From Melaminivora suipulveris (GTDB lineage Bacteria; Pseudomonadota; Gammaproteobacteria; Burkholderiales; Burkholderiaceae_C), in contig NZ_CP027667.1 of NCBI RefSeq assembly GCF_003008575.1, positions 2,380,001 through 2,444,000 of the forward strand: 64,000 bases of DNA, given 5' to 3'. Below, piece after piece: positions 2,858 through 33,646 of this stretch. The translations under genes and the position numbers were made by a program. The notes beneath the pieces were generated by a model. It did not search any database. It had not been told where the DNA came from and saw only the letters and a list, made by a program, of their open reading frames with translations. Positions within the stretch are counted from its first letter, which is position 1, and each line of letters starts with the position of its first letter.

Positions 2858-4306
2858 GGCTCCTCGTCGATTCGTGTGGATCCCAACACCCACAATTGGC
2901 CCCTGGGGCAACACTGAGTAGATCAGAAGAAAGATGCAAACCGACATGACCGCAGGAGCAGGGATCGAGGCGTTGTTCACCACGGCACTGGGCCTGCAGC
3001 CGCCCTGGGAGGTGGTGCAGGTGCAGCTTGAGACGGCCCGCCGGCGCATCGACTTTGAAGTGCGCTGCAGCGCCAAGCGCCTGGCTTGCCCGCACTGCGG
3101 CCTGGCCGAGCAAGGCATCCACGACCGGCTGCGCCGCTGCTGGCGCCACCTGGACTTCTTTCAATACGAAGCCTGGCTGCACGCCGACGTGCCGCGCGTG
3201 GCCTGCTGGGGCTGCGGCAAGACGGCGCAGGCGCCTGTTCCCTGGGCCCGGGAGGGATCGGGTTTTACGGCCTTGTTTGAAGCGCTGGCGCTGTCGCTGT
3301 GCGCGCAGATGCCGGTGCGCCAGGCGGCTGAGCTGCTGCGCTGCTCGGACAAACAGCTGTGGCTGCGCATCGAGCACTACGTCGGGTGCGCTCGCCACGG
3401 CGACGACATGAGCGGCGTGCGCCGCATCGGCATCGATGAGACCAGCCTGCGCAAGGGGCACAACTACATCACCGTGGTGCATGACCTGGAGGCCAAGCGG
3501 CTGCTGTTTGCCACCGAAGGGCGCGACCATGAAACGGTGCACGCCTTCGTGCAGGACTTGCAGGCGCACCAGGGCGATCCCGCCAAGATCGAGCATGTCT
3601 GCCAGGACATGAGCGGCGCCTACCTCAAGGGGGTGAGCCAGGCGCTGCCCCAGGCGGCCATCAGCTACGACCGCTTTCACGTGCTGGCCCTGGCCGGCCA
3701 GGCCATGGACGAGGTGCGCACCAGCGAGTGGCGCAGCCACCCCAAGGCGGTCACGGAGGTCTTTGGTGACAAGGACAGCGAAACCCGCAAGGGCTTGATG
3801 TGGGGCATGCGCAAGAACCCGCAGGGCTGGACGGCCAGGCAAGCCGCCGCCATGCACTGGCTGCAGCGCTCGCATCTTCAGTCTGCCCGTGCCTGGCGCA
3901 TGAAGATGAGTTTGCGTGAGGTGTACGCCAGGGCGCGTGAACACAACGACTCGGGCAGCGCGCAGCTTGAGCTCAGGCGCTGGCTCAGCTGGGCCAGGCG
4001 AAGCCGCCTGAAGCCCTTTGTGCGTCTGGCCAAGACCATCACCGAACACTTCGATGGCGTCGTGCGGGGGATGCTGGACAACCGCTCCAACGCCTATGTG
4101 GAGGCCATGAACGGGCTGCTGCAGCAGGTCAAGCGGGCGGCCCGGGGCTTTCGCACAGCCAAGAACTTCATCGCGATTGCGCATCTGCGCATGGGCCGGC
4201 TCAAGGATTTGCCGCAAAGCCCATTCAAGATGGCTGAGCCTGGCAATGACACGGGCTACCGCCATGTGTAGTGCCTGTCAGATTCCACACGAATCGACGA
4301 GGAGCC
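2858..4306 (+). mobile_element. ISL3-family insertion sequence, apparently complete
   Basis: Perfect 23-bp terminal inverted repeats bound the element: GGCTCCTCGTCGATTCGTGT plus GGA at 2858-2880, and its exact reverse complement at 4284-4306. One intact transposase gene lies between them. The total length of 1449 bp and single-gene plan fit the ISL3 family. Members usually create 8-bp target duplications. The flanks here (GGCCCGCT on the left, CGGCCCCG on the right) are similar in composition but not a direct repeat, so no duplication can be claimed. The element sits between a ribosomal operon and liuR. Confidence 0.92.
2934..4271 (+). CDS. tnpA: ISL3-family transposase
   Basis: A 445-residue transposase that catalyses movement of the surrounding insertion sequence. 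The N-terminal third has two CxxC pairs (CPHCGL near residue 52 and CWGCGK near 94), the zinc ribbon of the DDE_Tnp_ISL3 family. The catalytic acidic residues are seen in GIDETSLRKGHNY, CQDMSGAYLKG and, near the C terminus, in YVEAMNGLLQQ followed by RAARGFR, the usual ISL3 signature. Length is typical for the family and no frameshift is present, so the enzyme is probably active. The ATG at 2934 is preceded by a purine-rich AGAAGAAAG. Base composition does not stand out from the host genes. Confidence 0.95.
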   Translation: MQTDMTAGAGIEALFTTALGLQPPWEVVQVQLETARRRIDFEVRCSAKRLACPHCGLAEQGIHDRLRRCWRHLDFFQYEAWLHADVPRVACWGCGKTAQAPVPWAREGSGFTALFEALALSLCAQMPVRQAAELLRCSDKQLWLRIEHYVGCARHGDDMSGVRRIGIDETSLRKGHNYITVVHDLEAKRLLFATEGRDHETVHAFVQDLQAHQGDPAKIEHVCQDMSGAYLKGVSQALPQAAISYDRFHVLALAGQAMDEVRTSEWRSHPKAVTEVFGDKDSETRKGLMWGMRKNPQGWTARQAAAMHWLQRSHLQSARAWRMKMSLREVYARAREHNDSGSAQLELRRWLSWARRSRLKPFVRLAKTITEHFDGVVRGMLDNRSNAYVEAMNGLLQQVKRAARGFRTAKNFIAIAHLRMGRLKDLPQSPFKMAEPGNDTGYRHV

Positions 4307-9984: not shown

Positions 9985-12351
9985 ATGGCCGCACAGCAGC
10001 ACCGCCATCCCCTGGCCAGGCTGGTATGGCGCTTCGCCGCCATGCTGGCCTTCATCTGCTGCGCGACGCTGCTGGCCAGCGCCTATCTGATCGAAGGCAG
10101 TCTGCGCAACGCGCAGCAGGAGGCATTTTCAGCCCGCTTCGCGCTGGCGACGCAGCGCGCGGCCACCGCTGCCGAGAACGCCCTCGCGCTGGGCGTGCCG
10201 CTTGCGCCGGACACACCGCTGGCGCAACTGCTGACGCGCGAGGCGGCCTTGGAGCCCGTCCTGTACGGCTTCACCGTCGAGACGGCGCAGGGCAAGACTT
10301 TGCTGCAGGCAGCAGGGCGCCACCCGGCGCCGGCGACGGACGATGCCGTCGCGCTGGCGCAAACCGCCATCCGCAACGACCTGGGACAAACCGTGGGCTG
10401 GACACGCCTGCGCTATGACGAGAGCGCGCTGCACACGGCGCGCCAGCATTTGAGCCAGGCTGTCTGGACCAGCGCCTGGCTGGCCAGCGCGCTCCTGTGC
10501 CTGGGCCTGGCCGGATGTTGCGCCTGGCTGCTGCGGCACACGCAGGGCGGGCGCAAGCGATCGCGCCTGCCCCTGGGCGAGCGCACGGCGCTGCTGCTGG
10601 CCGCCATCGCGCTGTTGACGGCGGTGCTGCTGGCGCTGGGCTGGCGCGCCGCCACGGCCGGCCAGGCCAGCATCGCGCCGGACCAGATGGCCAAGGCCAC
10701 GGCCGTGGCGCGCTCCAGCGCGGCCTTGGTAGCGCGCGCTCTGGCTGCCGGCGTGCCGCTGGACCAGCTCGTCGGGGTCGACGCGCATGCGGCGGCGCTG
10801 CACTCCCGCAGCCCGGAGATCACGGCCCTTGCTGTCGTGACTGCCGATGGGCACACCATGGCCGGCGGCACGCCGCTGCAGCCCGGCCCCTGGACGGTGC
10901 AGGCGCCGGTCACTCTCCCCGGTGCGAATCAGCCGTCAGCCCAGGTGCTGCTGCAGGTCGACTCCGGATTGCTGGCGCGCCGCCTGCAAGGCACCTTGCT
11001 GGACATGGCCTTCCTGGGCGTGGTCAGCCTGCTGCTGGCCCTGGAATGGGTGGCCCTGGGCCTGGGCACGCGCGGCGCCCGTGCGCTGTCGGTCTGGCAG
11101 GCGCGCCGCAGCGCTGATCCGGCCGAGCGCCGCGCCTGGCGCGCCGGCAGCGCCGCAGCGGTGCGGCCCGCGTTGTTCCTGTTCATGCTGGCCGAGGAAT
11201 TCACGCGCCCCTTCCTGCCCACGTGGGGGCGCAGCCTCGCGCCTGAGGGCGCTTTATTCACGCCGGACACCTTGGCCGGACTGCCGCTGGCTGCCTTTCT
11301 GGCTGTGGTGGCGCTGCTGCAGTGGCCGCTGGCCGCCTGGTCCGAGCGTTTCGGCCGGCGGCGCGGCCTGGCCCTGGGCGCCTTGCTGGGCGCCGCCGGG
11401 CTGGCCTGGGCGGCGCTGCAACCTCAGTTCGCGGCCCTTTTGGGCGCGCGCATCGTGAGCGCCGTGGGTTTTGCCATGGTCTTCGTCTCGGCGCAGGGCG
11501 CCGTGATCGACGGCTCCAGCGCGGGCGACCGCGCGCACAGCCTGGCGCAGTTCGTGCGCGCCATCCTCGTGGCCGGGCTGTGCGGCCCGCCCCTGGGAGG
11601 GCTGGCCGCCGAACGCTGGGGTGTGCCGGCCACGTTCGCGCTGGCCGCCGCCGTGTCGCTGCTCGCAGCGGCGGTCGCCTGGCTGCAGGTTCCGCCCGGC
11701 CGTCCGGCGCCGGCATCCGCGCCGCAGGCCGCAGCGCGCCGCGCGCCACTGGCGGCCGTATTGCGCCAGCCCGGCCTGGCGGCCTTGCTGCTGGGCTGTG
11801 CCATGCCGGCCAAGCTGCTTCTGGCTGCGCTGTGCTTTTACCTGCTGCCGCTGCATCTGCAGGACCAGGGCGAAGGCAGCGCCGTGATCGGGCGGCTGCA
11901 AACGGTCTATCCGCTGACCATGGTGCTGCTGGTGCCCGTGGCTGCGCGCCTGGCCGACCGCTGGCGGCAGCGGCGCGGCTTCGTGCTCGCTGGCGGGTTG
12001 CTGGCCGGCGCCGGCGCTGTGTTGGCCTGGCCCACTGCCGGCTCGGCCTGGTACCTGGCCCTGGTGTTGCTCGTGCTGGGTCTGGGACAGGCGCTGTCGA
12101 TCACGCCGCAATCGGCCATGGTGGCGGACCTGGCGCGCAGCCTGCCCGAGCGCCAGGGGGCAGCGGTGCTCGGCCTGTTCCGCCTGACCGAGCGCAGCGG
12201 CAGCGCGCTGGGTCCGGTGATGGCGGCCTGGCTGCTGCCGCTGCTGGGTTTCGGCCCGGCGGTGGCGTTGATCGGCGCGCTGGTGCTGGGCGGAAGCGCA
12301 GCCTACGGCTGGAGTCAGAGGTCAGCACGCGCCCGCGCCGTCAATCCGTGA
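9985..12351 (+). CDS. Membrane protein: two sensor modules fused to an MFS transporter
   Basis: 788 residues in two unlike halves. Residues 1-365 contain four predicted membrane helices (about 13-33, 158-183, 202-222, 338-360) enclosing two extracytoplasmic segments with the same motif: AENALALGVPL near 63-73 with GKTLLQAAG near 103-111, and ARALAAGVPL near 250-259 with ADGHTMAGG near 287-295. Residues from about 390 to 775 are a major-facilitator transporter with roughly 12 helices and an A-type loop (SERFGRRRGLALG near 453-465). The pair of sensor modules in front of an MFS core is unusual. It is the first gene of an operon that continues to the PP2C phosphatase at 18887. Transported substrate unknown. 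A transceptor role (transport plus sensing) is inference. Confidence 0.8.
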   Translation: MAAQQHRHPLARLVWRFAAMLAFICCATLLASAYLIEGSLRNAQQEAFSARFALATQRAATAAENALALGVPLAPDTPLAQLLTREAALEPVLYGFTVETAQGKTLLQAAGRHPAPATDDAVALAQTAIRNDLGQTVGWTRLRYDESALHTARQHLSQAVWTSAWLASALLCLGLAGCCAWLLRHTQGGRKRSRLPLGERTALLLAAIALLTAVLLALGWRAATAGQASIAPDQMAKATAVARSSAALVARALAAGVPLDQLVGVDAHAAALHSRSPEITALAVVTADGHTMAGGTPLQPGPWTVQAPVTLPGANQPSAQVLLQVDSGLLARRLQGTLLDMAFLGVVSLLLALEWVALGLGTRGARALSVWQARRSADPAERRAWRAGSAAAVRPALFLFMLAEEFTRPFLPTWGRSLAPEGALFTPDTLAGLPLAAFLAVVALLQWPLAAWSERFGRRRGLALGALLGAAGLAWAALQPQFAALLGARIVSAVGFAMVFVSAQGAVIDGSSAGDRAHSLAQFVRAILVAGLCGPPLGGLAAERWGVPATFALAAAVSLLAAAVAWLQVPPGRPAPASAPQAAARRAPLAAVLRQPGLAALLLGCAMPAKLLLAALCFYLLPLHLQDQGEGSAVIGRLQTVYPLTMVLLVPVAARLADRWRQRRGFVLAGGLLAGAGAVLAWPTAGSAWYLALVLLVLGLGQALSITPQSAMVADLARSLPERQGAAVLGLFRLTERSGSALGPVMAAWLLPLLGFGPAVALIGALVLGGSAAYGWSQRSARARAVNP

Positions 12352-12395
12352 CGGTGGCGGTGCGCCCAAGCCGATTGCAAGTCACAATTGTTGAC

Positions 12396-13457
12396 ATGAC
12401 GCGCAGAAGTTTTCTTCGCCAATGCCTGCAGGGCGCCGGAATGCCGCTGCTGGCGCCGCTGGCCGCGCGCGCCGCGCAGGCGGCCGCGGACGGGCGCGAA
12501 TTCCATGTCCTGATGATCACCTTCCGCGGCGAGACCGACGTGGACAGGGGTTTCCGCGCCTATCTGGCCGATGCCGGGCTGCGCGTGCGCTACACCCTGC
12601 GCGACCTGGGCCAGGACGCCACGCGCATGCCGGCCATCGTGCAGGAAGCGCGTCGCCTGGCGCCCGACCTGATCTACGTATGGGGGACGCCGGCCACGCT
12701 CGGCCTGGTGGGGCCCTGGGACGGGCGCGACGGCGCCGGCGCCCAGCAGCGCTACATCCATGACATCCCGGTGGTCTTCGCGCTGGTGGCCGCGCCCGTG
12801 CAGTCGCGCATCGTGCAGCAGCTCGACGCACCGGGGCACAACGTCACCGGGGCGGTGCACGTGGTGCCGCCCGAGGTGCAGCTGCGCGTGATGCAGCATT
12901 ACCTGCCCTACCGCAAGCTGGGCGTGCTGTACAACAGCCAGGAGCCGAACTCGCGCGCCATCGTCGAGCAGACCCGGCGCTACTGCGCCGGCGCCGGCGT
13001 GCAGCTGGTCGAACGCACCTTCGCCGTCGGCGCCGGCGGCCAGCCGCTGGCCGACGGCGTGGAGGATCTCATCGCAGACATCCACCGTGCCGGCGCCCAG
13101 TGGCTTTATCTGCTGCCCGACACCTTTCTGGGCACGCTGTACGACCGCGTCTCGCCCACCGCGCTGGGGCTCAAGCTGCCGACCTTCGGCGCGGCCGAAC
13201 TCGCGGTGCGCTCGGGCGGGGCGCTGCTGGGTCTGGTCAGCCGTTACTGGTCGGTGGGCCAGCTGGCGGGCGCCAAGGCCACCGAGATCCTGGTCGGCGG
13301 CAAGGCGCCCGGCAGCATTCCGGTGGAGACCCTCAAGCGCTTTTCCCTCTTGGTGAACATGCGCGCCGCGCACCGGCTGAGCCTGTACCCGCCCATCGAC
13401 ATGCTGAACTACGCCGAGGTCATCGCCGTGGGCGACGGCCCGGCGATCGCCTCATGA
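12396..13457 (+). CDS. Tat-exported periplasmic binding protein (ABC_sub_bind family)
   Basis: A 353-residue protein starting MTRRSFLRQCLQGAG, a twin-arginine signal, followed by a hydrophobic stretch and AARAAQA cleavage site. The mature part resembles the TrpX-like ABC_sub_bind family (two-lobed binding protein; VWGTPATLGLVG, DIPVVFALVAAPVQSRIV, and LYNSQEPNSRA segments). No ABC permease or ATPase accompanies it. Family members with such orphan placement often act as ligand-binding partners of membrane sensors, which fits the surrounding sensor genes. Stop overlaps the next start by ATGA. Ligand unknown. Confidence 0.8.
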   Translation: MTRRSFLRQCLQGAGMPLLAPLAARAAQAAADGREFHVLMITFRGETDVDRGFRAYLADAGLRVRYTLRDLGQDATRMPAIVQEARRLAPDLIYVWGTPATLGLVGPWDGRDGAGAQQRYIHDIPVVFALVAAPVQSRIVQQLDAPGHNVTGAVHVVPPEVQLRVMQHYLPYRKLGVLYNSQEPNSRAIVEQTRRYCAGAGVQLVERTFAVGAGGQPLADGVEDLIADIHRAGAQWLYLLPDTFLGTLYDRVSPTALGLKLPTFGAAELAVRSGGALLGLVSRYWSVGQLAGAKATEILVGGKAPGSIPVETLKRFSLLVNMRAAHRLSLYPPIDMLNYAEVIAVGDGPAIAS

Positions 13458-14122
13458 GCGCCCAGCCCGATGGCGGCGCCGCGCAGCTGCTGTGGCGCGC
13501 GCTGCAGCCTGCCGACCTGCCGGCCATGCACGCGCTGCACCTGGCCAGTGTCGCCGGCGTCCAGGCGGCCATCGTCAAACCGGAGAGCCGGGAGTTCTTG
13601 CAAGCCCTGCTGGCCGGGCGCGGGCGCGTGCTCGGCGGCTGGCGCGGCCAGGAATTGGTCGCCTATGGCGTGTTGCAGCACGATCTGCTGCCCGAGGACG
13701 ACCAGCGCGCGCTGCTGGGCCTGGCGCCGGCGCAGCCGTTGTACAAGCTGGCTGGCGCGGCCGTGGCACCTGCCTGGCGCGGCCGGGGCCTGCAGCGCCT
13801 GCTGATCCAGCGGCGCATGGACTGGGCCGGCGCGGCGGCCGTCATCGCCACGGCCGCGCCTGGCAATTTCGCCAGCTGGCACAGCCTGCTGGCCTGCGGC
13901 CTGCAGGTGCGCGCCGTGGTGCGCCGCTACGGTGGACATGCGCGCTACCTGCTGGCCCACGTGTCGCACGAGGTCCCTTTCGGCGCCGGCGCGCGGGAGG
14001 TCGACGCGCAGGACCTGGCGCAGCAGGAACAGCTCCTGCAGTCGGGCTGGCGCGGCGTGGCGCCGGGCAGCGGGGGCAGCGCGCTGCTGTTCGCGCCGCC
14101 GTCCGGCGGGGGCGGCGCATGA
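13454..14122 (+). CDS. GNAT-family N-acetyltransferase
   Basis: 222 residues. The acetyl-CoA-binding motif A is visible as AAVAPAWRGRGLQRLLIQRR (R-G-R-G-L) near the middle, flanked by the beta strands of the GNAT fold, with the ASWHSLLACGL segment in place of the usual NxxxxxFYxxxGF. Target unknown. The gene overlaps its neighbours by four bases on both sides (ATGA at 13454 and 14119), so it is translated with the binding protein and the racemase-like enzyme. The pairing with an amino-acid racemase suggests a small amine or amino-acid substrate, which is only inference. Confidence 0.78.
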   Translation: MSAQPDGGAAQLLWRALQPADLPAMHALHLASVAGVQAAIVKPESREFLQALLAGRGRVLGGWRGQELVAYGVLQHDLLPEDDQRALLGLAPAQPLYKLAGAAVAPAWRGRGLQRLLIQRRMDWAGAAAVIATAAPGNFASWHSLLACGLQVRAVVRRYGGHARYLLAHVSHEVPFGAGAREVDAQDLAQQEQLLQSGWRGVAPGSGGSALLFAPPSGGGGA

Positions 14123-15270
14123 CACCGCCAGACGCCGCACACGACGGCCCCTGTCTGCTGCTGGATCTGCAGGCCCTGGCCGACAACTGGCGCACCGTGT
14201 GCGCGGCGTGCCCGGCCAGCCGCGTCGGCGCAGTGGTCAAGGGCGACGCCTATGGCCTGGGCGTGGCGCAGATCGTGCCCACGCTGTGGGAGCTTGGCTG
14301 CCGCGACTTCTGGCTGGCCACCGCCGACGAGGCGCTGCGCGTGCGTGCGTGCCTGCCCGGCGATGCGCCGGCGTGCGGGCTGCGCCTGTGGCTGCTCGAC
14401 GGCCTGGGCGGCCATGACGCGCGTGACCTGGCCGGCGAAGGCCTGATTCCGGCGCTGGCCGGCCCGCACGAGGCGGCCCTGCTGGGCGGCGCCAGCTCCT
14501 GCGCCGGCGCGCCGCTGCCGGTGGCCGTCCACCTGGACACCGGCCTGAGCCGGCTTGGCTTCGGTGCGCGCGACCTGGCCCTGTTGCAGCCGCGCGCCGA
14601 GCTGTGGCGCGTTGCGCGCCCGCTGCTGTGGCTCACGCATCTGGGACGCTTCCACGACCCCGAGGCGCCGCAATGCCTGCACCAGCGCGAACTGTTCCTG
14701 CGCTGGACCGCGCAACTGCCGCCGGCTGCGCGCAGCATCGCCACCTCGTCCAGCGTGTTCGCCGGGCCGGGCTGGCACTTCGACCACGTGCGCGCGGGCA
14801 GCGCCCTGTGGGGCGTGCCGACCAGCGTGCGCGTGCAGGCGCCGCTGCGCCCGGTGGCGCATCTGCACGCGCCAGTGCTGCGCGTCGCCGAGGTCGAAGC
14901 CGGCACCGAGATCGGCTACGCCGGCAACCACGTCACCGACCGCGCCCGGCGCATCGCCACCATCGCGCTGGGCTATGGCGATGGCCTGCCGTTCGGCCTG
15001 GTCAACCGCGGGCAGCTGATCGTCGCCGGGCGCTCGGCGTCCATCGTCGGCGGGGTGGCCATGGGCATGCTGGCGCTGGACGTGAGCGATTTCGCGCTGG
15101 GCGAAGTGCGCCCTGGACAGTGGGTCGAGGTCTACGGCGCGCGCCAGCCGCTGGCCACGCTGGCCGCCGCCGCCGGCGTGGCGCCCAACGTCCTGCTGAT
15201 GCTCACCTCGCGCCTGGCGCGGCGGCGTGTCGCGCGCGCCGCCGCGCCGGTGGCGGAGCCGGCGCTGTGA
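14119..15270 (+). CDS. Alanine racemase-like PLP enzyme
   Basis: 383 residues with both domains of a fold-III racemase. The PLP lysine is K41 in AVVKGDAYGLG, where ordinary alanine racemases have KADAYGHG. The second catalytic residue is Y267 in EIGYAGNHV. HLDTGLSRLGF and ALGYGDGLP are conserved, but the SMDML block that borders the active site reads GGVAMGMLALD, losing its aspartate. It is therefore likely catalytic, with altered specificity (alanine, serine or another amino acid). It lies deep inside a signalling operon, not beside dadA, replicative helicase or cell-wall genes, so a dedicated role in making or removing a D-amino-acid signal is plausible but unproven. Overlaps both neighbours by four bases. 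Confidence 0.85.
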   Translation: MTPPDAAHDGPCLLLDLQALADNWRTVCAACPASRVGAVVKGDAYGLGVAQIVPTLWELGCRDFWLATADEALRVRACLPGDAPACGLRLWLLDGLGGHDARDLAGEGLIPALAGPHEAALLGGASSCAGAPLPVAVHLDTGLSRLGFGARDLALLQPRAELWRVARPLLWLTHLGRFHDPEAPQCLHQRELFLRWTAQLPPAARSIATSSSVFAGPGWHFDHVRAGSALWGVPTSVRVQAPLRPVAHLHAPVLRVAEVEAGTEIGYAGNHVTDRARRIATIALGYGDGLPFGLVNRGQLIVAGRSASIVGGVAMGMLALDVSDFALGEVRPGQWVEVYGARQPLATLAAAAGVAPNVLLMLTSRLARRRVARAAAPVAEPAL

Positions 15271-16028
15271 CCCGCGCCGCGCGCATCCAGTTCCTGGCGC
15301 TGGCCGGGCTGGGCCTGCTGCTGGCGCTGCTGTGGGCGCTGTCGCAGCTCGCGGGGGAGCGGCACGCGCGCGAGATGGAGCAGCAGCGCGACGCCTACCT
15401 GCTGCGCCACCTGCGCACCGCCGCCGAGAACTACCTGGCCACCGGCCTGCACCTGGAGCAGATGCAGGCGCTGCAGGACATGATCGAGCGCGAGCGCGCG
15501 GCGTTCGCCGGCATCGTCGCCATCGACGTCTTCAGCCCAGGGGGCGCCGTGCTCTACAGCACCGATCTGGGCAGTCGCGGCAGCGCGGTGCCCGAGCCGT
15601 GGCGTGCCGTGCTGGCCGTCGACGGCCTCTGGGAGGGCGCGGCGCCCGGCCAGCGCCAGGTCGGCCAGCGCTTTGACAGCGACCTGGGCCAGGCCGCGGG
15701 CGGCATCGTCATCACCCTGTCCACCATCCAGCCGCCGCCGTCGCTGGGACAGTGGCAGGAGCGCGGCCGGCGGCTGCTGCGCTGGCTGGCCGCGGCGGCG
15801 CTGGCCGCGCTGGCCGCCGCCGCGGCATTGCACATCGGCCTGCGGCGGCTGGAGCGCCCCTGGGATGAGGCCGCGCGCGTTCTGCAGGCCGAGGGGGACG
15901 TGTCCAAGCCGCCGGCCACGGCGCCGCTGGCCCGGCAGGCATGGCGCCTGCGCCTGGCCTGGCGCAACGAACACCGGCGCTGCCAGCACAGCCTGCGGCA
16001 ACTGGAGGCGCTCGACCATGAGGCGTGA
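15267..16028 (+). CDS. Membrane sensor protein of the signalling operon
   Basis: 253 residues, not recognised as a named family. GTG start overlapping the racemase-like stop (GTGA). A membrane helix at about 8-29, an extracytoplasmic segment with the sensor-like motif AENYLATGLHLEQMQALQDM (53-72) and FSPGGAVLYSTD (89-100), a second helix at about 168-190, and a charged cytoplasmic tail of about 60 residues. There is no recognisable HAMP, kinase or other output domain. The motif resembles those in the MFS fusion and in the next gene, suggesting that these proteins share a sensing domain. It probably works as an accessory sensor to the phosphatase encoded two genes on. Confidence 0.65.
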   Translation: MTRAARIQFLALAGLGLLLALLWALSQLAGERHAREMEQQRDAYLLRHLRTAAENYLATGLHLEQMQALQDMIERERAAFAGIVAIDVFSPGGAVLYSTDLGSRGSAVPEPWRAVLAVDGLWEGAAPGQRQVGQRFDSDLGQAAGGIVITLSTIQPPPSLGQWQERGRRLLRWLAAAALAALAAAAALHIGLRRLERPWDEAARVLQAEGDVSKPPATAPLARQAWRLRLAWRNEHRRCQHSLRQLEALDHEA

Positions 16029-16860
16029 CGGGCTGCGCCAGCGCCTGGCGCACGACCTGCGCTGGCGTGTCGGGCTGCTGGTGTTTGCGGTGCTGGGAGC
16101 GGTGGGCAGCGCCTGCGCCGCGTGGGCGTTGCACGACATGCGCCTGCGCAGCGCGCATGCCGCCTCGCAGGACGCTGGCGCCATGGCGCAGTCGGTGGCG
16201 CAAAACCTGGCGCAGCAGCTGAGCCGGGCCGTGCGCCTGGGCATTCCGCTGCGCGAGCTGCCGGGTGTGCCGGCCTATCTGCAGGGCGCGCTGGACCGGC
16301 AGCCCACCCTGGTGCGCATCGCCGTGGAGGCGCCGGACGGCCAGGTCCTGCACGCCGTCGGCGGCCGCGCGGCGGCGCGGGGCGACGTCCAGTCGCTGCG
16401 CGTGCCGATCACCGCTGGCGGTGTCGAGGCCGGAGCCGTGGCGCTGGGGGTGGACGCCGGCGCCGGCCCGCAGCGCAGCCTGCGGCGCGCCGCCTGGGAG
16501 AGCGCCCTGGCGGTGCTCGTCCTGGCGCTGGCCTGCGCGCTGGCGGTGGCGTTCGGTCCCGCAGCCGGTTGGGAGATGCAGCGCCGCCGCGTGCAGGCGC
16601 GCCTGGCCGCCGGTGCCGAGCACGCGCCCACGCCGCGCGAGGACGGCGCGTCCGATGCGCGCGGCCCGGCCGCGGTGGCGCGGGCGCTTCACCGTGGCGA
16701 CGAGCGCCTGCTGGCCGCCCGCAAGGCTTTGCAGGCCTACGGCGAGGAGCTGCTGGCGCTGGATTTCGACGGACACCTGCGCACCCAGGTCGAGCACCTG
16801 GTGCGGCTTGGCGGCGCCGCGCGCGAGGCCGGCGCGCCGCCGCAAGGCGACAACACCTGA
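16018..16860 (+). CDS. Second membrane sensor protein of the signalling operon
   Basis: 280 residues; overlaps the previous gene by 11 bases. Helix at about 17-39, extracytoplasmic segment with QLSRAVRLGIPLRELPGV (67-84) and APDGQVLHAVGG (105-116), then a helix at about 158-180 and a cytoplasmic tail of about 100 residues. The motif G-I-P-L-x-x-L-x-G-V is the same as in the second sensor module of the MFS fusion (GVPLDQLVGV). No output domain is recognised. The stop is five bases before the phosphatase start, so the two are co-translated or at least co-transcribed. Confidence 0.65.
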   Translation: MRRDGLRQRLAHDLRWRVGLLVFAVLGAVGSACAAWALHDMRLRSAHAASQDAGAMAQSVAQNLAQQLSRAVRLGIPLRELPGVPAYLQGALDRQPTLVRIAVEAPDGQVLHAVGGRAAARGDVQSLRVPITAGGVEAGAVALGVDAGAGPQRSLRRAAWESALAVLVLALACALAVAFGPAAGWEMQRRRVQARLAAGAEHAPTPREDGASDARGPAAVARALHRGDERLLAARKALQAYGEELLALDFDGHLRTQVEHLVRLGGAAREAGAPPQGDNT

Positions 16861-16865
16861 ACCGC

Positions 16866-18887
16866 ATGCTGCTGCGCACCCGCATCACCCTCATGGTCGC
16901 CGCCAGCCTGCTGCTGTTGGCGGCCGGATGGCGCGTGGCCACGCTGGTGCGCGACCAGCTGGCCGAGCGCCGCCTGGCCGTGGCGGTGCAGACGGCGCAC
17001 GCCGCGCTGTGGTCGCAGGCGCTGGCCGCGCAGGACCGTGAACTCGACGAGCGCATGGACAAGCTCTTGCTGATGCCCGGCTTCGCGCTCAGCGCGCGGC
17101 AGGCCGACGCGCCGGCGCTGGAGCGGCTGCTGGCCGACGCCGGCGCGCAGCCGGCGCAGGCGGGCCCGCTGCAGGTGGCCGCCGTGCTCGGCGGCGGGCG
17201 CGCGCCGGCGGTGCTGGGCGTTGCCATGGCGCGCGAGCTGCTGGATGCCGACAGCCTGGAGCGCGCCGTCACCGGCGACTCGGTGGACGGTCTGCGGCTG
17301 GTCGGGCCGCGCCAGGCGCTGGTGCTGTCCACGCGGCGCCTGCCCGGCGAGGGCGAGCCGCAGGTGCTGGTTTTGGCGCGCGACGTGCGCCAGGCGCTGG
17401 ACCACATCCGCGACCGAAGTGGCGCGGAGTTGACCTTGCTGGACCTGCGCGGCCGCCTGGTCGCCACCACCGACGAGGCCCTGTGGCGCCAGGCCGCGGG
17501 CCACGTCGCCCAGCGCGGCGCGCAGGTGGATGCGCTGCGCCTGGACGGACGCAGCTACACCGTGAGCGCGCTGGCGGTGAACGACCTGGCCGGGCACCCG
17601 GCGGGCAGCGTGGTGGCGCTGCTGGACCAGACACGCGACGCGCAGGCCCAGGCCTTTCTGGGCCGGCTGGTGCTGGCCGGCATGGGCCTGGCGGTGCTGG
17701 CCGTGTTGCTGGCGCTGAACGCCTACCTGCGCGCCAGCTTGCGGCCGCTGGAGAAATCCATCGACGCCCTGGCTGCGCTGGCGCAGGGCGACGACAGCGT
17801 GCACCTGCCGGCGGGCGGCAACGACGAGATCGGCCGCATCGCCCGCGCCGTCGCCACCTTCCGGCGCAATGCGCAGGAGCTGGCGGCCACGCGCGCGCTG
17901 CGCGAGCGCGTGCGCCGACGCCAGGAGCGGCTGCTGCGCACGCGGCTGCAGGTACTGGCCGAGGCCACGCAGCAGCCCCTGGCCTGGCATGCCGGCGGCA
18001 GCGACGAGGAGCAGCTGCGCCAGCTCGCCGCCGTCATGAACGAGCTGTCGGGCCGGCTGGTCGAGCAACACCAGCGCCTGACCGGCATGGTGCAGGAGCT
18101 GCGCGAGGCGCTGGTCACCAAGACCCGCCTGGCCGGCCTGGAGCAGGAGCTGCAGATCGCCGCGCAGGTGCAGCTCTCCATCCTGCCGCACAACCCGCCG
18201 CAGGACGCGCGCGTGCAGCTGCACTGCCACATCACGCCGGCGCGCGAGGTCGGGGGCGATTTCTACGACTATTTCTTCATCGACGAATCGCGCCTGGGCT
18301 TCGTCATCGCCGACGTCTCGGGCAAGGGCGTGCCGGCGGCGCTGTTCATGACCATCACCCGCACGCTGCTCAAGGCCACGGCGCAGTTCGTCGGCGAGCC
18401 CACGCGCTGCCTGACGCAGCTCAACGACCTGCTGGCGGCCGAGAACGAGCAAATGATGTTCGTGACCCTGTTCTACGGCGTGCTGGACCTGGCCAGCGGC
18501 CAGGCGCAATACGTCAACGCCGGGCACAACCCGCCCTACGTGCTGCGCGCCGACGGCAGCGTGCAGGCCGTGGCGCGCACCGGCGGCATGGCGGTGGCGG
18601 TCAGCGAGGGCTTCCCCTATCGCAGCGCATTGCTGCAGCTGCAGCCGGGCGAGCGCCTGTTCCTCTACACCGACGGCGTCACCGAGGCCTTCGACCCGGA
18701 CGGGCGGGAATATGGCGAGGAGCGGCTGGAGCGGGCCCTGCGGCGCGCCGCCGCCGCCGGCGCGCCGGACACCGCCGAGGCCCCGGCGCGCGCCGTGCTG
18801 GCCGACGTGCACCAGTTCGAGCGCGGCGCGCCGCAGGCCGACGACATCACCTGCATGGTGCTGCGCTACGTCGGGGCCGCCCACTGA
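16866..18887 (+). CDS. Membrane-bound PP2C/SpoIIE-type serine phosphatase with sensor and HAMP domains
   Basis: 673 residues. Helix at about 5-25, a large extracytoplasmic region to about 258, a second helix near 263-284 and a HAMP domain (about 285-345, PLEKSIDALAALAQGDD). A coiled-coil linker leads to a C-terminal PP2C domain (about 430-670). Metal-binding aspartates are present in REVGGDFYDYF, VIADVSGKGVPAALFM, FLYTDGVTEAFD and PQADDITCMVL. Such RsbU/SpoIIE-like phosphatases dephosphorylate a STAS-domain antagonist and so release a sigma factor or other partner. Both expected partners, an RsbW-like kinase (18997-19473) and a STAS protein (21360-21692), lie just downstream. Last gene of the operon starting at 9985. 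Confidence 0.9.
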   Translation: MLLRTRITLMVAASLLLLAAGWRVATLVRDQLAERRLAVAVQTAHAALWSQALAAQDRELDERMDKLLLMPGFALSARQADAPALERLLADAGAQPAQAGPLQVAAVLGGGRAPAVLGVAMARELLDADSLERAVTGDSVDGLRLVGPRQALVLSTRRLPGEGEPQVLVLARDVRQALDHIRDRSGAELTLLDLRGRLVATTDEALWRQAAGHVAQRGAQVDALRLDGRSYTVSALAVNDLAGHPAGSVVALLDQTRDAQAQAFLGRLVLAGMGLAVLAVLLALNAYLRASLRPLEKSIDALAALAQGDDSVHLPAGGNDEIGRIARAVATFRRNAQELAATRALRERVRRRQERLLRTRLQVLAEATQQPLAWHAGGSDEEQLRQLAAVMNELSGRLVEQHQRLTGMVQELREALVTKTRLAGLEQELQIAAQVQLSILPHNPPQDARVQLHCHITPAREVGGDFYDYFFIDESRLGFVIADVSGKGVPAALFMTITRTLLKATAQFVGEPTRCLTQLNDLLAAENEQMMFVTLFYGVLDLASGQAQYVNAGHNPPYVLRADGSVQAVARTGGMAVAVSEGFPYRSALLQLQPGERLFLYTDGVTEAFDPDGREYGEERLERALRRAAAAGAPDTAEAPARAVLADVHQFERGAPQADDITCMVLRYVGAAH

Positions 18888-18905
18888 ACCGCTGGCGCGC
18901 GAGCG

Positions 18906-18960
18906 TAAAAATTGATAGCAAACTTCCTATGAAACACGCCGGCTGAGGCGGTTTTTCTCT
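18906..18960 (+). repeat. Dispersed Comamonadaceae-type repeat, copy 1 (possible terminator)
   Basis: AAAATTGATAGCAAAC, then CACGCC-GGCTGA-GGCG followed by TTTTTCTC. The short CGCC/GGCG hairpin and T-run resemble an intrinsic terminator; it lies between the convergent phosphatase and kinase genes. Same family as the copies at 21693, 23352, 30364, 47871, 55884, 60321 and 62787. Confidence 0.75.
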
Positions 18961-18996
18961 GGTAATGCTGTGCGCAGGCGCGGCGCTGCGGCTTTT

Positions 18997-19473
18997 TCAC
19001 GCCCGCGGTGGGCGCGCCACTTCCATCAGCAGCCGGTTGCGCCCCTGTTCGCGCCGGTACGACAGCTGCTGCAGATAGTGGCGCATCAGGCGCAGGCCAT
19101 GGCCGCCGATGGCGGCGTTCTCCAGCGTGGCCGCCAGCTGCGGCGAGGCCTGCGCCGTCGGGTCGAAGGCCGTGCCGTCGTCCTCGATGCACAGCGCCAC
19201 GCCGGCGGGCGTGGGCCCGCAGGTCAGCCAGATGCGCGCCGGCGCGCCCTGCGCGGTGCGCGCGTGGTGCGCCACGTTGGCCAGGGCCTCGTCGGCGCAC
19301 AGCGTCAGGGCGAAGCTGACGCTGGCGGGCCATTGCAGGCGCTCGCCCAATGCTTCCAGCCAGGCCAGCGCGGCCGTGATGCCGGCCGGGCCGGTTTCAG
19401 GCGCGAACTGGTGCGTCGGTCCGCTCCAGTCGGGCCAGACCGCAGGGGCGGGGCAGGGCGGCGCGGTCGTCAT
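18997..19473 (-). CDS. RsbW-like ATP-binding serine kinase/anti-sigma factor
   Basis: 158 residues of a GHKL (HATPase_c_2) domain. The N box is ADEALANVAHHA, the G1 box is IEDDGTAFDP and the G2 box is IGGHGLRLMRHY, so ATP binding and kinase activity should be intact. Proteins of this type phosphorylate a STAS antagonist and hold a sigma factor or other target when the antagonist is phosphorylated. It is downstream of and co-directional with the permease gene (which ends at 19504). The frame is open to a GTG at 19497, which would add eight residues; the ATG at 19473 is preferred, with moderate certainty. No sigma factor is encoded nearby, so its output target is unknown. Confidence 0.87.
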   Translation of the reverse strand: MTTAPPCPAPAVWPDWSGPTHQFAPETGPAGITAALAWLEALGERLQWPASVSFALTLCADEALANVAHHARTAQGAPARIWLTCGPTPAGVALCIEDDGTAFDPTAQASPQLAATLENAAIGGHGLRLMRHYLQQLSYRREQGRNRLLMEVARPPRA

Positions 19474-19503
19474 GGCGGGGCTGCGGGGTTGGTGCACACC
19501 TTT

Positions 19504-21261
19504 TCAATGTTGGAAATGCAGGCGCAGCCAGGATTGCCCGTCGGTCTCGCCGCTGCCCACGCGATCGGCCAGATGGTGCAGCAGCCGGCCGGAAACCTGG
19601 GCCAGCGCCGCGTCCAGGGCGCCATCGTCGCCCTCCAGCAGGTCTGCCGCCACTGGCGGCGCCGCCTGGGCGCCTGCCAGTGGTAGTGGCGCGCCGCTGT
19701 GCAGCAGTTCCAGGTCCAGGTTGAATTCGTCGAAGCTGCCGCGTATGCCCGTCACATGCCGACCGCCGCCGGCGATGGCCTCGGCCGCCTCCACGGCCGC
19801 CAGCGCCGCCACCTGCACGGCGCTGCGCCGCGCGCCCCAGGCGGCACCGCGCGCCTCGACGAAGGAGACGATGTCGGCGTGCAGCGCGGGGCTGGCGGCG
19901 TCCAGCGCGGCGCTGGCGCGCTGCGCCGTGCCCAGGCGGAACAGCAGGTTCAGCGCGATGACCAGGATGCCGGTGACCACGAAGGGGTTGCCCAGCAGGA
20001 AGCGCAGGCCTTCGGGCAGCTGCTGCGCCAGTTGCGGCATCTCCATCAGCGCCACGCCGGCGGCCAGCGACAGGCCGACGGCGAAGATGGTGCGGCTGTC
20101 CATGGCGCGAGAGACGATCAGCTCCATGCCCGAGACGATCAGGAAGCCCGCCGCGTACAGCCCCACCGCGCCCAGCACCGGCTCGGGGATCAGCGTCAGC
20201 GCCAGGGTCAACTGCGGCAGGAAGGCCACCAGCGCCAGCAGGGCGGCGGTGGCCAGGCCGATGACGCGCGCCGTCGAGCGCGTGGCGTAGGCCAGCGCGA
20301 TGTTGGCCGAGCAGGTGGCGGTGGGAAAGGCTCCCAGCATGCCCACGACCAGGTCGCCGATGCCGTTGGCCTTGATGCCGCCGGCGATGGCCTGCATGTC
20401 GGCGCGCTTCCAGTCGGCGTTGTCCATCTTGTCCAGCATGATCACGCTGCCCAGCGTGTCCAGGTGCGACAGCACCGCCACCAGGCACAGCGCCACCAGC
20501 ATGCCCGCGTCCAGGCGGATCACCGGGCGGCTGATGCGCGGCAGATCGACCAGCGGCACGCCGGCCAGCGCCTGTCCGCCCTCCAGCCGGCCCAGCGCGG
20601 CCGCGATCAGCACGCCCAGCGCCATGGCCGCCAGCAGCGCCATCAGCCGCAGCCTGCGCCCGCCCCAGACCGACAGCAGCACGATGGCGGCCAGCGTCGC
20701 GCCGCCCACCAGGGCGCTGGCGCCGTCGACCTGCCACTGCCCGGCGCCCACGTTCAGCATCTGCCGCACCGACGTCGACACCAGCGCCATGCCGCCCATG
20801 CAGATCACCACGCCCACCACGGTGGGCGGAAACAGCGGCCGCAGATGGCGCACCAGCGGCGCCATGCCCAGCGCCACCACGCCATAGACCAGCGCCGCGC
20901 TGGCCACGCCGCCCGGCCCGTGGGCCGCCACCAGCGCGGCCACGAAGGGAATCATGAAAGGGTTGGGCATGTGCACCAGCAGCGCGCCGCTGCCCACGCG
21001 CCCGCCCCATGCCTGCAGCGCCGTGCACAGCGCCATGCCCAGCAGCGTCATGGCCACCATGGCCTGCGTGCCCAGGCGGTCCAGCCCGGCCAGGCGCGCG
21101 GCCACCAGCACGTAGGCGATGAAGGCCATGGTCGTGCCGGCGTGTTGTGCGGCCAGCAGCAGCAGGCTGGCGGCGGGTGGGCGTTCGCCTGCGGCGTAGG
21201 CGAGCTCGGGCGGGCGGCGGCGCGCGGCGGTGGCCGGCAGGCGCAGGGGAAAAAAGCGCAT
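19504..21261 (-). CDS. Xanthine/uracil-type permease with extra C-terminal domain
   Basis: About 585 residues. The first 430 or so form a nucleobase-ascorbate transporter core with about 12-14 helices (for example AAQHAGTTMAFIAYVL, GAFPTATCSANIALA, FLIVSGMELIVSRAMDSRTI). A soluble tail of about 130 residues follows (from FVEARGAAWGARRSAV through RGSFDEFNLDLELL to the final LRLHFQH). This tail is known from related permeases and resembles a degenerate GHKL/RsbW-like ATPase, although the N-box asparagine is not evident. The intact RsbW-like gene directly follows at 24 bp or less. Alternative starts lie at 21303 and 21318; 21261 is chosen because the longer forms would overlap the promoter of the divergent STAS gene. 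Substrate not determinable. Confidence 0.82.
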   Translation of the reverse strand: MRFFPLRLPATAARRRPPELAYAAGERPPAASLLLLAAQHAGTTMAFIAYVLVAARLAGLDRLGTQAMVAMTLLGMALCTALQAWGGRVGSGALLVHMPNPFMIPFVAALVAAHGPGGVASAALVYGVVALGMAPLVRHLRPLFPPTVVGVVICMGGMALVSTSVRQMLNVGAGQWQVDGASALVGGATLAAIVLLSVWGGRRLRLMALLAAMALGVLIAAALGRLEGGQALAGVPLVDLPRISRPVIRLDAGMLVALCLVAVLSHLDTLGSVIMLDKMDNADWKRADMQAIAGGIKANGIGDLVVGMLGAFPTATCSANIALAYATRSTARVIGLATAALLALVAFLPQLTLALTLIPEPVLGAVGLYAAGFLIVSGMELIVSRAMDSRTIFAVGLSLAAGVALMEMPQLAQQLPEGLRFLLGNPFVVTGILVIALNLLFRLGTAQRASAALDAASPALHADIVSFVEARGAAWGARRSAVQVAALAAVEAAEAIAGGGRHVTGIRGSFDEFNLDLELLHSGAPLPLAGAQAAPPVAADLLEGDDGALDAALAQVSGRLLHHLADRVGSGETDGQSWLRLHFQH

Positions 21262-21359
21262 GGTGGAGGCGACGAAGAGGCGAAAAAAACGCCGCGCTAT
21301 CATCGCGGCCGCTCGCATTCTGCGATAACCGTGAACTTTCCCAGCCGAGTATTTTCGCC

Positions 21360-21692
21360 ATGACCATCGCCATCGAGGCCACGGACCGCGCCCACATCGT
21401 GGGCCTGCGTGGCCAGCTCAACAGCGGCAACGCCGCCGCCACCGAAGCCGATGTGCTCGGCCTCGTCGATGGCGGCGCGCGCCAGATCGTGCTGGACTTC
21501 AGCGCGCTGGACTACATCTCCAGCGCCGGCCTGCGCGTGGTGCTGGTACTGGCCAAGCGCCTGAAGGCCGAGGGCGGCAAGCTGGTGCTCTACGGCATGC
21601 AGCCGCACGTGCGCGAGGTCTTCGACATCAGCGGCTTCCTGGCCATCCTGAACGTCCAGAGCGGCCGCGCCGAGGCGCTCGCGCAGATCTGA
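21360..21692 (+). CDS. STAS-domain anti-sigma factor antagonist (RsbV/SpoIIAA-like)
   Basis: A 110-residue single STAS domain. The conserved phosphorylation loop reads DYISSAGLRVVLVLAKRL, with S55 the likely phosphorylated serine by alignment to RsbV S56. It is transcribed divergently from the permease and RsbW-like genes. With the PP2C phosphatase (16866-18887) and the RsbW-like kinase (18997-19473) it completes a partner-switching triad: kinase phosphorylates S55, phosphatase removes it, and only the dephosphorylated form sequesters the kinase. The real downstream target is unknown. Confidence 0.92.
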   Translation: MTIAIEATDRAHIVGLRGQLNSGNAAATEADVLGLVDGGARQIVLDFSALDYISSAGLRVVLVLAKRLKAEGGKLVLYGMQPHVREVFDISGFLAILNVQSGRAEALAQI

Positions 21693-30473: not shown

Positions 30474-31619
30474 TCACCCGAGCGCGCGCGAGTGCGCGTC
30501 GCTGCGAAAGACCAGCGGGATGTGCCGGCGCGCCGGCGCGCTGCGCACCAGCTCCACGATCTGCCCGTGTGCCGGCGACTTGGCGCATACCGGATCGGTG
30601 GCCGCCGCGTCACCGGTCAGCAAAAACGCCTGGCAGCGGCAGCCGCCGAAGTCCTTGTGGCGCTCGTCGCAGCTGCGGCAGGGCTCGCGCATCCAGTCCT
30701 CGCCCCGGTAGGCGTTGAAGGCCTGGCTGCGCTGCCAGATGTCGGCGATGCCGTGCTCGCCGACGTGGGGCAGGCTCAGGCCCGGCAGGTCGCGCGCGTT
30801 GTGGCAGGGCATGGCCAGGCCGTCGGGGGCGATGCTCAGGAACACCGAACCCCAGCCGTTCATGCAGGCCTTGGGGCGCTCCTCGAAGTAGTCGGGTACG
30901 ACGAACAGCAGGCGGCAGCGGCTGCCGATGCGCTCGCGCCAGGACTGCACCACGGCCTCGGCCTCGCGCAGCTGCTCGCGCGTGGGCATGAGCTGGTCGC
31001 GGTTCAGCCAGGCCCAGCCGTAGTACTGCGCGTTGGCCAGCTCCAGGTATTCGGCCTGCAGCGCCAGCGCCATCTCGATGATCGCTCCCACGTGCGGCAG
31101 GTTGTGCCGGTGCAGCACGCAGTTCAGCACCATCGGCCAGTCGTGCTCCTTGATGGTGCGCGCCACCTGCTGCTTGAGCTCGAAGGTGCGCGTGTGGCTC
31201 AGAAAGTCGTTGAGTTCGCGCGTGCTGTCCTGGAACGACAGCTGCACGTGGTCCAGCCCGGCGTCCTTCAGGCGTCGCGCGCGCGCCGGGCTCAGGCCCA
31301 CGCCGGAGGTGATCAGGTTGGTGTAGAAGCCCAGGCCGCGCGCCTCCCGCACCAGCTCCTCCAGGTCGTCGCGCAGGAGCGGTTCGCCGCCGGAAAAGCC
31401 CAGCTGCGCGGCGCCCAGCGCGCGCGCCTGGCGCATCACGTCCACCCACTGCGCGGTGGACAGTTCGGCGCCGGTGCTGGCGTAGCGCGTCGGGTTGTAG
31501 CAAAACACGCAGTGCAGCGGGCAGCGGTAGGTGAGCTCGGCCAGCAGCCACAGCGGCGGCGGCACGGCCGGGCCGCCGTGGCCCGCACCGGGCGGTCGGT
31601 TGTCAGTCGAGCCAGCCAC
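30474..31619 (-). CDS. pqqE: PQQ biosynthesis radical SAM protein PqqE
   Basis: 381 residues. PqqE makes the Glu-Tyr carbon-carbon crosslink in the PqqA peptide. The radical-SAM cluster motif is CPLHCVFCYNP near residue 33, with GFSGGEPLLR following. The SPASM-type C-terminal cysteines are CMNGWGS, CHNARDLPG and CRSCDERHKDFGGCRCQAF. The GTG start at 31619 overlaps pqqD by 17 bases; PqqD is the peptide chaperone that works with PqqE. Length is normal. Confidence 0.97.
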   Translation of the reverse strand: MAGSTDNRPPGAGHGGPAVPPPLWLLAELTYRCPLHCVFCYNPTRYASTGAELSTAQWVDVMRQARALGAAQLGFSGGEPLLRDDLEELVREARGLGFYTNLITSGVGLSPARARRLKDAGLDHVQLSFQDSTRELNDFLSHTRTFELKQQVARTIKEHDWPMVLNCVLHRHNLPHVGAIIEMALALQAEYLELANAQYYGWAWLNRDQLMPTREQLREAEAVVQSWRERIGSRCRLLFVVPDYFEERPKACMNGWGSVFLSIAPDGLAMPCHNARDLPGLSLPHVGEHGIADIWQRSQAFNAYRGEDWMREPCRSCDERHKDFGGCRCQAFLLTGDAAATDPVCAKSPAHGQIVELVRSAPARRHIPLVFRSDAHSRALG

Positions 31620-31896
31620 GGCGCGTGCCTTCGTCGATCAGCGATTGCACCTGGGTGGCGATGCCGCGCGTGTCGAACAGCGCCTCCAGCTCGCCGACGA
31701 TGTCCGCCACCGTGTGCCGGCCGTCGCAGCGGCGCAGGATCTCTGCGGCGCTGTCGTTGAGCTGCACCATGCCCTCGGGATACAGCAACACCCAGCGGCC
31801 CTGCGCCGGCTCGTATTGCAGGCGCAGACGGCGCGACAGGCGCGGCAGCGCGGGGGTTTCGGTCAGGTCGGGGAAGGCGGTTTCAGGCGGGCTCAT
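31603..31896 (-). CDS. pqqD: PQQ biosynthesis peptide chaperone PqqD
   Basis: 97 residues. PqqD binds the PqqA peptide and presents it to PqqE. The signature [17 protein letters not shown] and [18 protein letters not shown] is present in the usual order. ATG at 31896 chosen because it overlaps the end of pqqC and gives the normal length; the longer open frame upstream is inside pqqC. Confidence 0.95.
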
Positions 31897-32623: not shown

Positions 32624-32632
32624 GGACGGGTG

Positions 32633-33550: not shown

Positions 33551-33646
33551 GAGGAAAACGGATGAAGAAGGCCGGAAGGGCAAGGCGCGGTGGCGCGCCG
33601 CTGCGGCCCAGGCAATGATTCAGGACGCAGCGGCGCGGACCCGCAC

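What the first reader, a model, noticed from the sequence alone, without database searches (positions are those of the whole stretch)
9985..21692. Uncharacterised partner-switching locus fused to transport, racemase and acetyltransferase genes
Seen: an operon with overlapping starts and stops (overlaps at 13454, 14119, 15267 and 16018, then a 5-bp gap) encodes a sensor-MFS fusion, a Tat-exported binding protein, a GNAT, an alanine-racemase-like enzyme, two membrane sensors and a PP2C phosphatase. Next to it are an RsbW-like kinase with intact N/G1/G2 boxes, a permease and a STAS protein with the SSAG phosphosite. Known: phosphatase, kinase and STAS protein together make an RsbU/W/V switch. Inferred: the enzymes produce or modify a small amino-acid-like signal that the sensor proteins and binding protein read. 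I know of no named system with these parts, and no sigma factor is encoded here.
Basis: partly seen in the sequence, partly recalled or inferred. Interest (0 to 1): 0.88.

Follow-up and report, generated by a model that had tools for sequence, protein, structure and literature searches.

The report
Transporter-linked partner-switching signal locus
A block of ten bacterial genes joins a transporter with built-in sensors to a protein-phosphorylation switch, using two copies of the same sensor pair, and the switch genes also lie beside a second transporter that may be what they control.

Summary
In detail: all ten genes are where stated, and the locus is conserved. It has three modules. (1) Transport unit: two extracytoplasmic sensors fused to an MFS transporter, plus a binding protein; MFS lies beside the binding protein in 21 of 21 places in an order-wide sample. 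(2) Phosphatase unit: a second copy of the sensor pair (S1, S2) before a HAMP-PP2C; the tree fits duplication of the pair. (3) An RsbW/STAS switch. Of 17 genomes with this PP2C among 399, 14 also carry the transport unit; in those 14 the GNAT is in 12, RsbW and STAS each in 9, the racemase in 5. Related permeases lie beside PP2C-RsbW-STAS trios in 4 of 7 other genomes. I read it as a partner switch fed by periplasmic sensing, with a STAS target that differs by lineage: here perhaps the permease, elsewhere perhaps a GGDEF protein or type III secretion. Ligand and target are untested.

The parts
9985..12351 (+). MFS transporter (about residues 390-788) with two N-terminal extracytoplasmic sensor domains (about 1-185 and 190-370): transport-unit sensors M1, M2
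   Evidence: Pfam MFS_1; HMM matches to both sensor families; tree
12396..13457 (+). Probably Tat-exported substrate-binding protein, PF04392, TrpX-like below the TrpX cut-off
   Evidence: RR motif read from the sequence
13454..14122 (+). GNAT acetyltransferase
   Evidence: PF00583 23.9 bits, cut-off 20.7; in 12 of 14 loci that have PP2C and MFS
14119..15270 (+). Alanine-racemase paralogue with MG for MD and N at the substrate-gating Tyr position; one sub-clade only
15267..16028 (+). S1 membrane sensor: TM, single Cache-type domain, TM, cytoplasmic helix
16018..16860 (+). S2 membrane sensor, paralogue of the second sensor of the MFS protein
   Evidence: P2 and M2 together on one side of a 100/100 branch
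16866..18887 (+). Membrane HAMP-PP2C (SpoIIE-type) phosphatase with its own N-terminal part; motifs GGDF, DVSGKG, TDG, DDIT present
18997..19497 (-). RsbW-like serine kinase (true start may be internal); possibly one operon with the permease
   Evidence: PF13581 above cut-off, N/G1/G2 boxes; no match in the PDB search
19504..21318 (-). NCS2 (UraA-like) permease, residues about 40-466, with a conserved RsbW-like tail (about 467-604)
21360..21692 (+). STAS anti-anti-sigma-type protein, phospho-site S55
   Evidence: PF01740 and TIGR00377 above cut-off; SSAG at 54-57

Best explanation
This is a transport-coupled partner switch. A more widespread unit, a binding protein plus an MFS transporter carrying a pair of Cache-type sensors, senses (and probably moves) a small periplasmic ligand, likely amino-acid-like. 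The sensor pair was duplicated and the second copy (S1, S2) stands before a HAMP-PP2C phosphatase. Ligand, or ligand-loaded binding protein, at S1/S2 sets the phosphatase; PP2C dephosphorylates STAS at S55, the RsbW-like kinase re-phosphorylates it, and free STAS acts on a target. In this lineage the best candidate target is the neighbouring NCS2 permease through its RsbW-like tail; in relatives the gene beside STAS is different (GGDEF protein, type III secretion genes), so the input is conserved and the output appears to be exchanged. Shown: gene content, linkage, motifs; well supported: sensor-pair duplication. Inferred: ligand type, contact of S1/S2 with PP2C, STAS target.
For: MFS beside the binding protein in 21 of 21 places. 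Transport unit within the fetched stretch (up to 20 kb) around PP2C in 14 of 17 PP2C genomes; S1-S2 directly before PP2C in 13 of those 14, the other contig beginning at PP2C. Sensor tree: M2+P2 on one side of a 100/100 branch (53 rows), 16 of 17 P2 together (93/55), 4 label changes against 54.4 shuffled. Motifs kept. Same STAS-permease-RsbW order in the window, Simplicispira L069 and G576 L137. Permease beside other PP2C-RsbW-STAS trios in G314, G474, G476 and G010. GGDEF gene beside STAS in G412 and G504; FHIPEP gene beside STAS in G524 and a YscD-like gene in G319.
Against: No interaction or phosphorylation data. RsbW and STAS were each found in only 9 of the 14 loci with PP2C and MFS (lower bounds: most were seen in one stretch of about 20 kb); G614, G507, G563 and G626 showed neither. 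The kinase has no match in the PDB search and is far below the RsbW equivalog cut-off (20.8 of 145). The permease has no nearby trio in G319, G102 and G179 and was not found beside most versions of this locus. The tail's RsbW resemblance is weak by sequence (hhalign Prob 5.5%, E 0.007; global mode E 0.15). In the tree the 8 M1 domains of the racemase-bearing clade do not join the other M1. S1/S2-PP2C coupling rests on gene order. A second RsbW-STAS pair in the genome could cross-talk.
Confidence: 0.55

Rival explanations
1. Conventional Rsb-type switch: the kinase is an anti-sigma factor for one of the sigma factors encoded elsewhere, and STAS releases it; the permease is only a neighbour or regulon member.
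For: Kinase, STAS and PP2C fit the Rsb-type Pfam families; closest solved STAS is SpoIIAA; the genome has 7 Sigma70_r2 places.
Against: No Sigma70_r2 match in the window, nearest about 41 kb before it. I noticed no sigma gene in the flanks of STAS that I listed in relatives, but did not scan those flanks for sigma families.
Confidence: 0.2
2. c-di-GMP output as in SiaABCD: STAS activates a diguanylate cyclase.
For: GGDEF proteins adjoin STAS in G412 and G504; in Pseudomonas SiaC activates SiaD (abstract); a PAS-GGDEF gene lies 3.3 kb beyond STAS in the window.
Against: The window GGDEF gene has no match at E 1e-10 in the Simplicispira and G576 stretches that hold STAS; PP2C scores 67.7 against the SiaA cut-off of 700.
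Confidence: 0.12
3. One reading: racemase and GNAT make or modify an amino-acid-like signal, read by the binding protein and sensors, that drives the switch.
For: Both genes overlap neighbours in the operon; racemase keeps PLP Lys and catalytic Tyr but lacks the specificity Tyr; that Tyr controls substrate range (passages).
Against: Racemase not found in 9 of 14 loci with PP2C and MFS; GNAT occurs with the transport unit where no such PP2C was found (G203, G383, G526).
Confidence: 0.2
4. Permease as input, not output: it senses its substrate and its tail competes with the kinase for STAS.
For: Same anatomy as the best explanation; tail keeps a Glu where the N box has its Glu but not the ATP-binding residues (by my alignment).
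Against: PP2C already has two sensor proteins before it and an N-terminal part of its own; no data on direction.
Confidence: 0.15

Closest known systems
RsbU-RsbW-RsbV (Bacillus sigma-B switch) and SpoIIE-SpoIIAB-SpoIIAA
   Same: SpoIIE-type PP2C, GHKL kinase with N/G1/G2 boxes, STAS with conserved Ser; closest solved STAS is SpoIIAA (1th8)
   Different: No sigma factor in the locus; sensors are paralogues of a transporter's sensors; permease next to the kinase; kinase below the RsbW and STAS below the SpoIIAA equivalog cut-offs
Pseudomonas SiaABCD
   Same: HAMP-PP2C and a STAS protein; GGDEF gene beside STAS in two relatives
   Different: SiaC is phosphorylated on Thr68 (abstract), here the motif has Ser55; PP2C far below the SiaA cut-off; the word transporter does not occur in PMC7647112
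Bordetella BtrU-BtrW-BtrV
   Same: Same bacterial order (recalled); BtrV also uses Ser55 (passage of PMC8256260); type III secretion genes near STAS in G319 and G524
   Different: No S1/S2, MFS or binding protein in the passages seen; orthology not tested
TrpX-type binding proteins (PF04392)
   Same: Same family; nearest solved 3lkv, 3lft, 6hni
   Different: 86 bits against the TrpX cut-off of 390; partnered with an MFS protein, no ABC permease or ATPase in the locus
SulP/SLC26 carriers with a STAS tail (tail recalled)
   Different: Here the tail resembles the kinase partner, not the STAS protein

Membership tests
Rsb-type partner switch | SpoIIE-type PP2C phosphatase with metal motifs | tested here: met
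   PF07228 179 bits; GGDF, DVSGKG, TDG, DDIT (motif list recalled)
Rsb-type partner switch | GHKL serine kinase with N, G1, G2 boxes | tested here: met
   PF13581 68.5 bits; boxes at 69, 105, 131; 17 of 18 RsbW HMM matches in the loci keep N and G2. But no PDB match and RsbW equivalog not reached, 20.8 of 145
Rsb-type partner switch | STAS protein with phosphorylatable Ser/Thr | tested here: met
   TIGR00377 74 of 53.45; S55; 15 of 15 STAS matches keep xSxG[LMI]R
Rsb-type partner switch | Sigma factor target encoded nearby | tested here: not met
   No Sigma70_r2 match inside the window
Rsb-type partner switch | Phosphorylation-dependent exchange of partners | not testable with these tools
   needs purified proteins
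SiaABCD | PP2C reaches the SiaA model NF038263 | tested here: not met
   67.7 of 700 bits
SiaABCD | Diguanylate cyclase in the operon | tested here: not met
   GGDEF gene is 3.3 kb from STAS and has no match in the Simplicispira and G576 stretches searched
BtrUWV | Orthology of PP2C, kinase and STAS | not tested
   no named Bordetella switch sequence compared
Alanine racemase (Alr/DadX) | Reaches an equivalog cut-off | tested here: not met
   TIGR00492 151 of 168; PRK00053.2-3 165 of 384; DadX 122 of 600
Alanine racemase (Alr/DadX) | PLP Lys and catalytic Tyr | tested here: met
   VVKGDAYG, EIGYAG; kept in 8 of 8 locus racemases
Alanine racemase (Alr/DadX) | Specificity Tyr (Tyr354 of Geobacillus) and MD motif | tested here: not met
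   MG in 8 of 8; N (6), S (1), A (1) at the Tyr position; own canonical Alr has Y and MD. One of three HMMER alignments gaps this Tyr, and the best-matching solved Alr, 3kw3, has His there
TrpX | Reaches NF041285 | tested here: not met
   86.4 of 390
Cache-type extracytoplasmic sensor (S1) | PAS/Cache fold between two TM helices | tested here: met
RsbW/GHKL domain (permease tail) | Fold | tested here: inconclusive
   order of strands and helices fits what I recall; hhalign E 0.007 over 111 columns, five other profiles E 0.03-0.74 over 4 to 17 columns; global mode E 0.15; first try E 0.012; no Pfam match in the window protein at E 10; fold search covered only 27-466
RsbW/GHKL domain (permease tail) | ATP-binding residues | tested here: not met
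   E510 kept in 49 of 50, but Ala 514 near the N-box Asn position and His 540 (48 of 50) at the G1 Asp position; no GxG seen (positions from my own alignment)

The most novel reading that the evidence does not exclude
The NCS2 permease is the direct output of the switch: its tail is a pseudo-RsbW that docks unphosphorylated STAS, so a PP2C/RsbW/STAS switch gates nucleobase- or urate-type transport without any sigma factor. More generally, one conserved sensing front end is plugged into different STAS targets in different lineages.
Probability: 0.22. Interest if true: 0.85.

Novelty: new variant of a known kind. Interest (0 to 1): 0.6.

Why it matters
It suggests how a transporter's sensors can be copied and rewired to a phosphorylation switch, gives a concrete non-sigma target to test for partner switches in Betaproteobacteria, and offers a natural series of relatives in which the same input appears to drive different outputs. 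It also gives S1, S2 and the permease tail, which matched no Pfam family for the window proteins, a testable role.

Tried and rejected
Chance neighbourhood: rejected by linkage. Canonical Alr: rejected by cut-offs and by a separate canonical Alr at C1:1686769. P2 tails of 421-452 aa in G171, G279, G675, G319 and G524 as decayed MFS domains: only weak support (hhalign Prob 14.7%, E 0.002 over 69 columns; Pfam gave nothing convincing for two of them), left open. Na/Pi-carrier C-terminus as RsbW-like: no support. The fold search of the permease listed mainly matches to residues 27-466, so the tail has no fold-search result. Papers: searches showed no paper on this gene set or on a permease-partner-switch link; these are listings (29 gave one paper I did not open; one listed 12 of 42), and the library lacks most subscription journals. 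The genome-contig scan with the GNAT alone gave 2 loci. My chance estimate for permease-trio adjacency (4 of 5 counting the window) assumes 2 random RsbW sites per 4 Mb and ignores shared descent. The tail search took only candidates of permease-like length, so it could not show the tail on much shorter or longer proteins. The Tat-motif count over relatives (23 of 37) picked up out-of-gene matches and is not relied on; several relatives show no RR.

Slips corrected: a script named files wrongly (redone); the canonical Alr was first taken from the wrong frame (corrected in 47); the GGDEF gene was first given out of frame (corrected in 90). The G507 extension lay inside a stretch already fetched and added nothing.
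Full report
Gene content. The genome is one 3.75-Mb contig and the window is C1:2380001-2444000. It has one strong SpoIIE match, the one here, and three weak ones; a second RsbW-STAS pair; and a canonical Alr elsewhere.

The locus is conserved. In an evenly drawn sample of 300 genomes of the order, the binding protein (E up to 1e-30) occurs in 17, at 21 places. I examined all 21 (window). Profile HMMs built from the window find the MFS domain beside the binding protein in 21 of 21 (in G122 the MFS gene is in three pieces), and at least one sensor domain in 20 of 21 (the G203 contig begins at the MFS gene). PP2C of this kind is in the fetched stretch in 4 of the 21 (window, G240, G171, G279); three contigs were short. 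So the transport unit is the widespread part and the phosphatase unit an addition, or a part often lost.

In 399 genomes of the family, PP2C (E up to 1e-60) is in 17 and GNAT (E up to 1e-8) in 12; 10 genomes have both. I fetched regions for all 17 (window). 14 of 17 carry MFS and binding protein; the exceptions are G313 and G490, which match only in the catalytic domain, and G382, a 6-kb contig. In those 14: S1-S2 directly before PP2C in 13 (the G323 contig begins at PP2C), GNAT in 12, RsbW in 9, STAS in 9 (both counts include G576, from its extension), racemase in 5. RsbW and STAS counts are lower bounds: of the 14, the window aside, only G171, G614, G576 and G412 were looked at beyond the first stretch; G614 showed neither in some 20 kb more, and the G507 extension added no new sequence. 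Racemases were also found in G240, Simplicispira metamorpha DSM 1837 (L015) and a MAG (L014), 8 genomes in all. In six genomes searched whole, the best RsbW match lay at or within about 10 kb of the locus in 6 of 6, and the best STAS match in 5 of 6 (G279 has it on another contig).

Two copies of one sensor pair. The MFS protein carries two sensor domains, and S1 and S2 are their paralogues. In a tree of 105 sensor domains, second-position sensors of both units lie on one side of a 100/100 branch (53 rows), and 16 of 17 P2 group together (93/55); the G504 P2, a long branch, falls among M2. The 17 P1 form one group (74/83). First-position sensors lie apart from these, except that 8 M1 of the racemase-bearing clade fall, with weak support (78/83), beside the M2+P2 group. 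This fits duplication of the pair as a unit, one copy with MFS, one with PP2C; the 8 M1 do not fit neatly. In five relatives the P2 protein has a further 421-452 aa after the sensor and in three 174-177, against 44-47 in G240 and the window; G504 showed 755, and its reading frame was not checked. Whether the long tails are decayed MFS domains is open. S1 models as TM, Cache-type domain, TM, helix, matching WalK, DctB, CitA and other ligand-binding sensors.

The enzymes. The 8 locus racemases keep the PLP lysine and catalytic tyrosine, but have MG where the canonical Alr has MD, and N (6), S (1) or A (1) where most Alr have the tyrosine that limits substrates. I saw passages of two papers stating that this tyrosine controls substrate specificity, that lysine and broad-specificity racemases have Thr or Ala there, and that a Thermoanaerobacter Alr has Gln (PMC3485190, PMC4517790). 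Against over-reading this: one of three HMMER alignments gaps the position, and the best-matching solved protein, named alanine racemase, has His there. A changed substrate is likely; which one is unknown. The binding protein's nearest named family is TrpX, below cut-off; TrpX of S. suis is described as part of a tryptophan uptake system (title and start of abstract only). An amino-acid-like ligand is therefore an inference.

Output. The gene beside STAS differs: permease (window, Simplicispira, G576), GGDEF protein (G412, G504), FHIPEP gene (G524) and a YscD-like gene just under the Pfam cut-offs (G319). Other loci show none of these (for example G323 and the MAG). Known switches act on a diguanylate cyclase (SiaABCD; abstracts of PMC7647112 and PMC8457831) and on type III secretion with Ser55 of BtrV (passages of PMC8256260). 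By analogy, the neighbour of STAS is a candidate target here too. This is inference from gene order.

Verdict. A real, conserved and apparently unnamed locus; a new variant of the partner-switch kind, with a duplicated transporter sensor as input and possibly a permease as output. No named system with this gene set came up in the listings of searches or 81.

Noticed in passing
L133:8233-10840 (own genome C1:2044232-2046839): A second RsbW-STAS pair followed directly by two patatin-like proteins and, further on, cellulose-synthase-like genes (last two names from my reading of the sequence, not from a family scan).
   Followed up: partly
L145, L147, L148 (G314, G476, G474): PP2C-RsbW-STAS trios preceded by a small exported binding-protein-like gene (my reading); a porin-like gene was seen in G474 and G314; in G476 and G474 a Na/Pi-type carrier stands between STAS and the NCS2 permease.
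   Followed up: partly
L016:16308-17954, L124:4354-6138, L129:15989-17695: Na+/Pi-cotransporter-family proteins next to the locus or switch genes in G240, G504 and G313, a second carrier type that recurs there.
   Followed up: partly
L125:17748-19184 and L126:1-648: Type III secretion family genes (YscD-like below cut-off; FHIPEP) beside STAS in two genomes of one genus.
   Followed up: partly
L069:3092-4807 and L137:17992-19716: A second, more distant NCS2 permease with the same kind of tail near RsbW; in Simplicispira a carbonic-anhydrase-like gene (my reading) lies between them.
   Followed up: no
window 2934-4271: ISL3-family transposase.
   Followed up: no
window about 30474-33583: Genes that read like a PQQ biosynthesis cluster (from the sequence only).
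   Followed up: no
L014:8906-9956 and 10672-11756: Binding protein and racemase of the MAG each match in two pieces, perhaps assembly errors.
   Followed up: no
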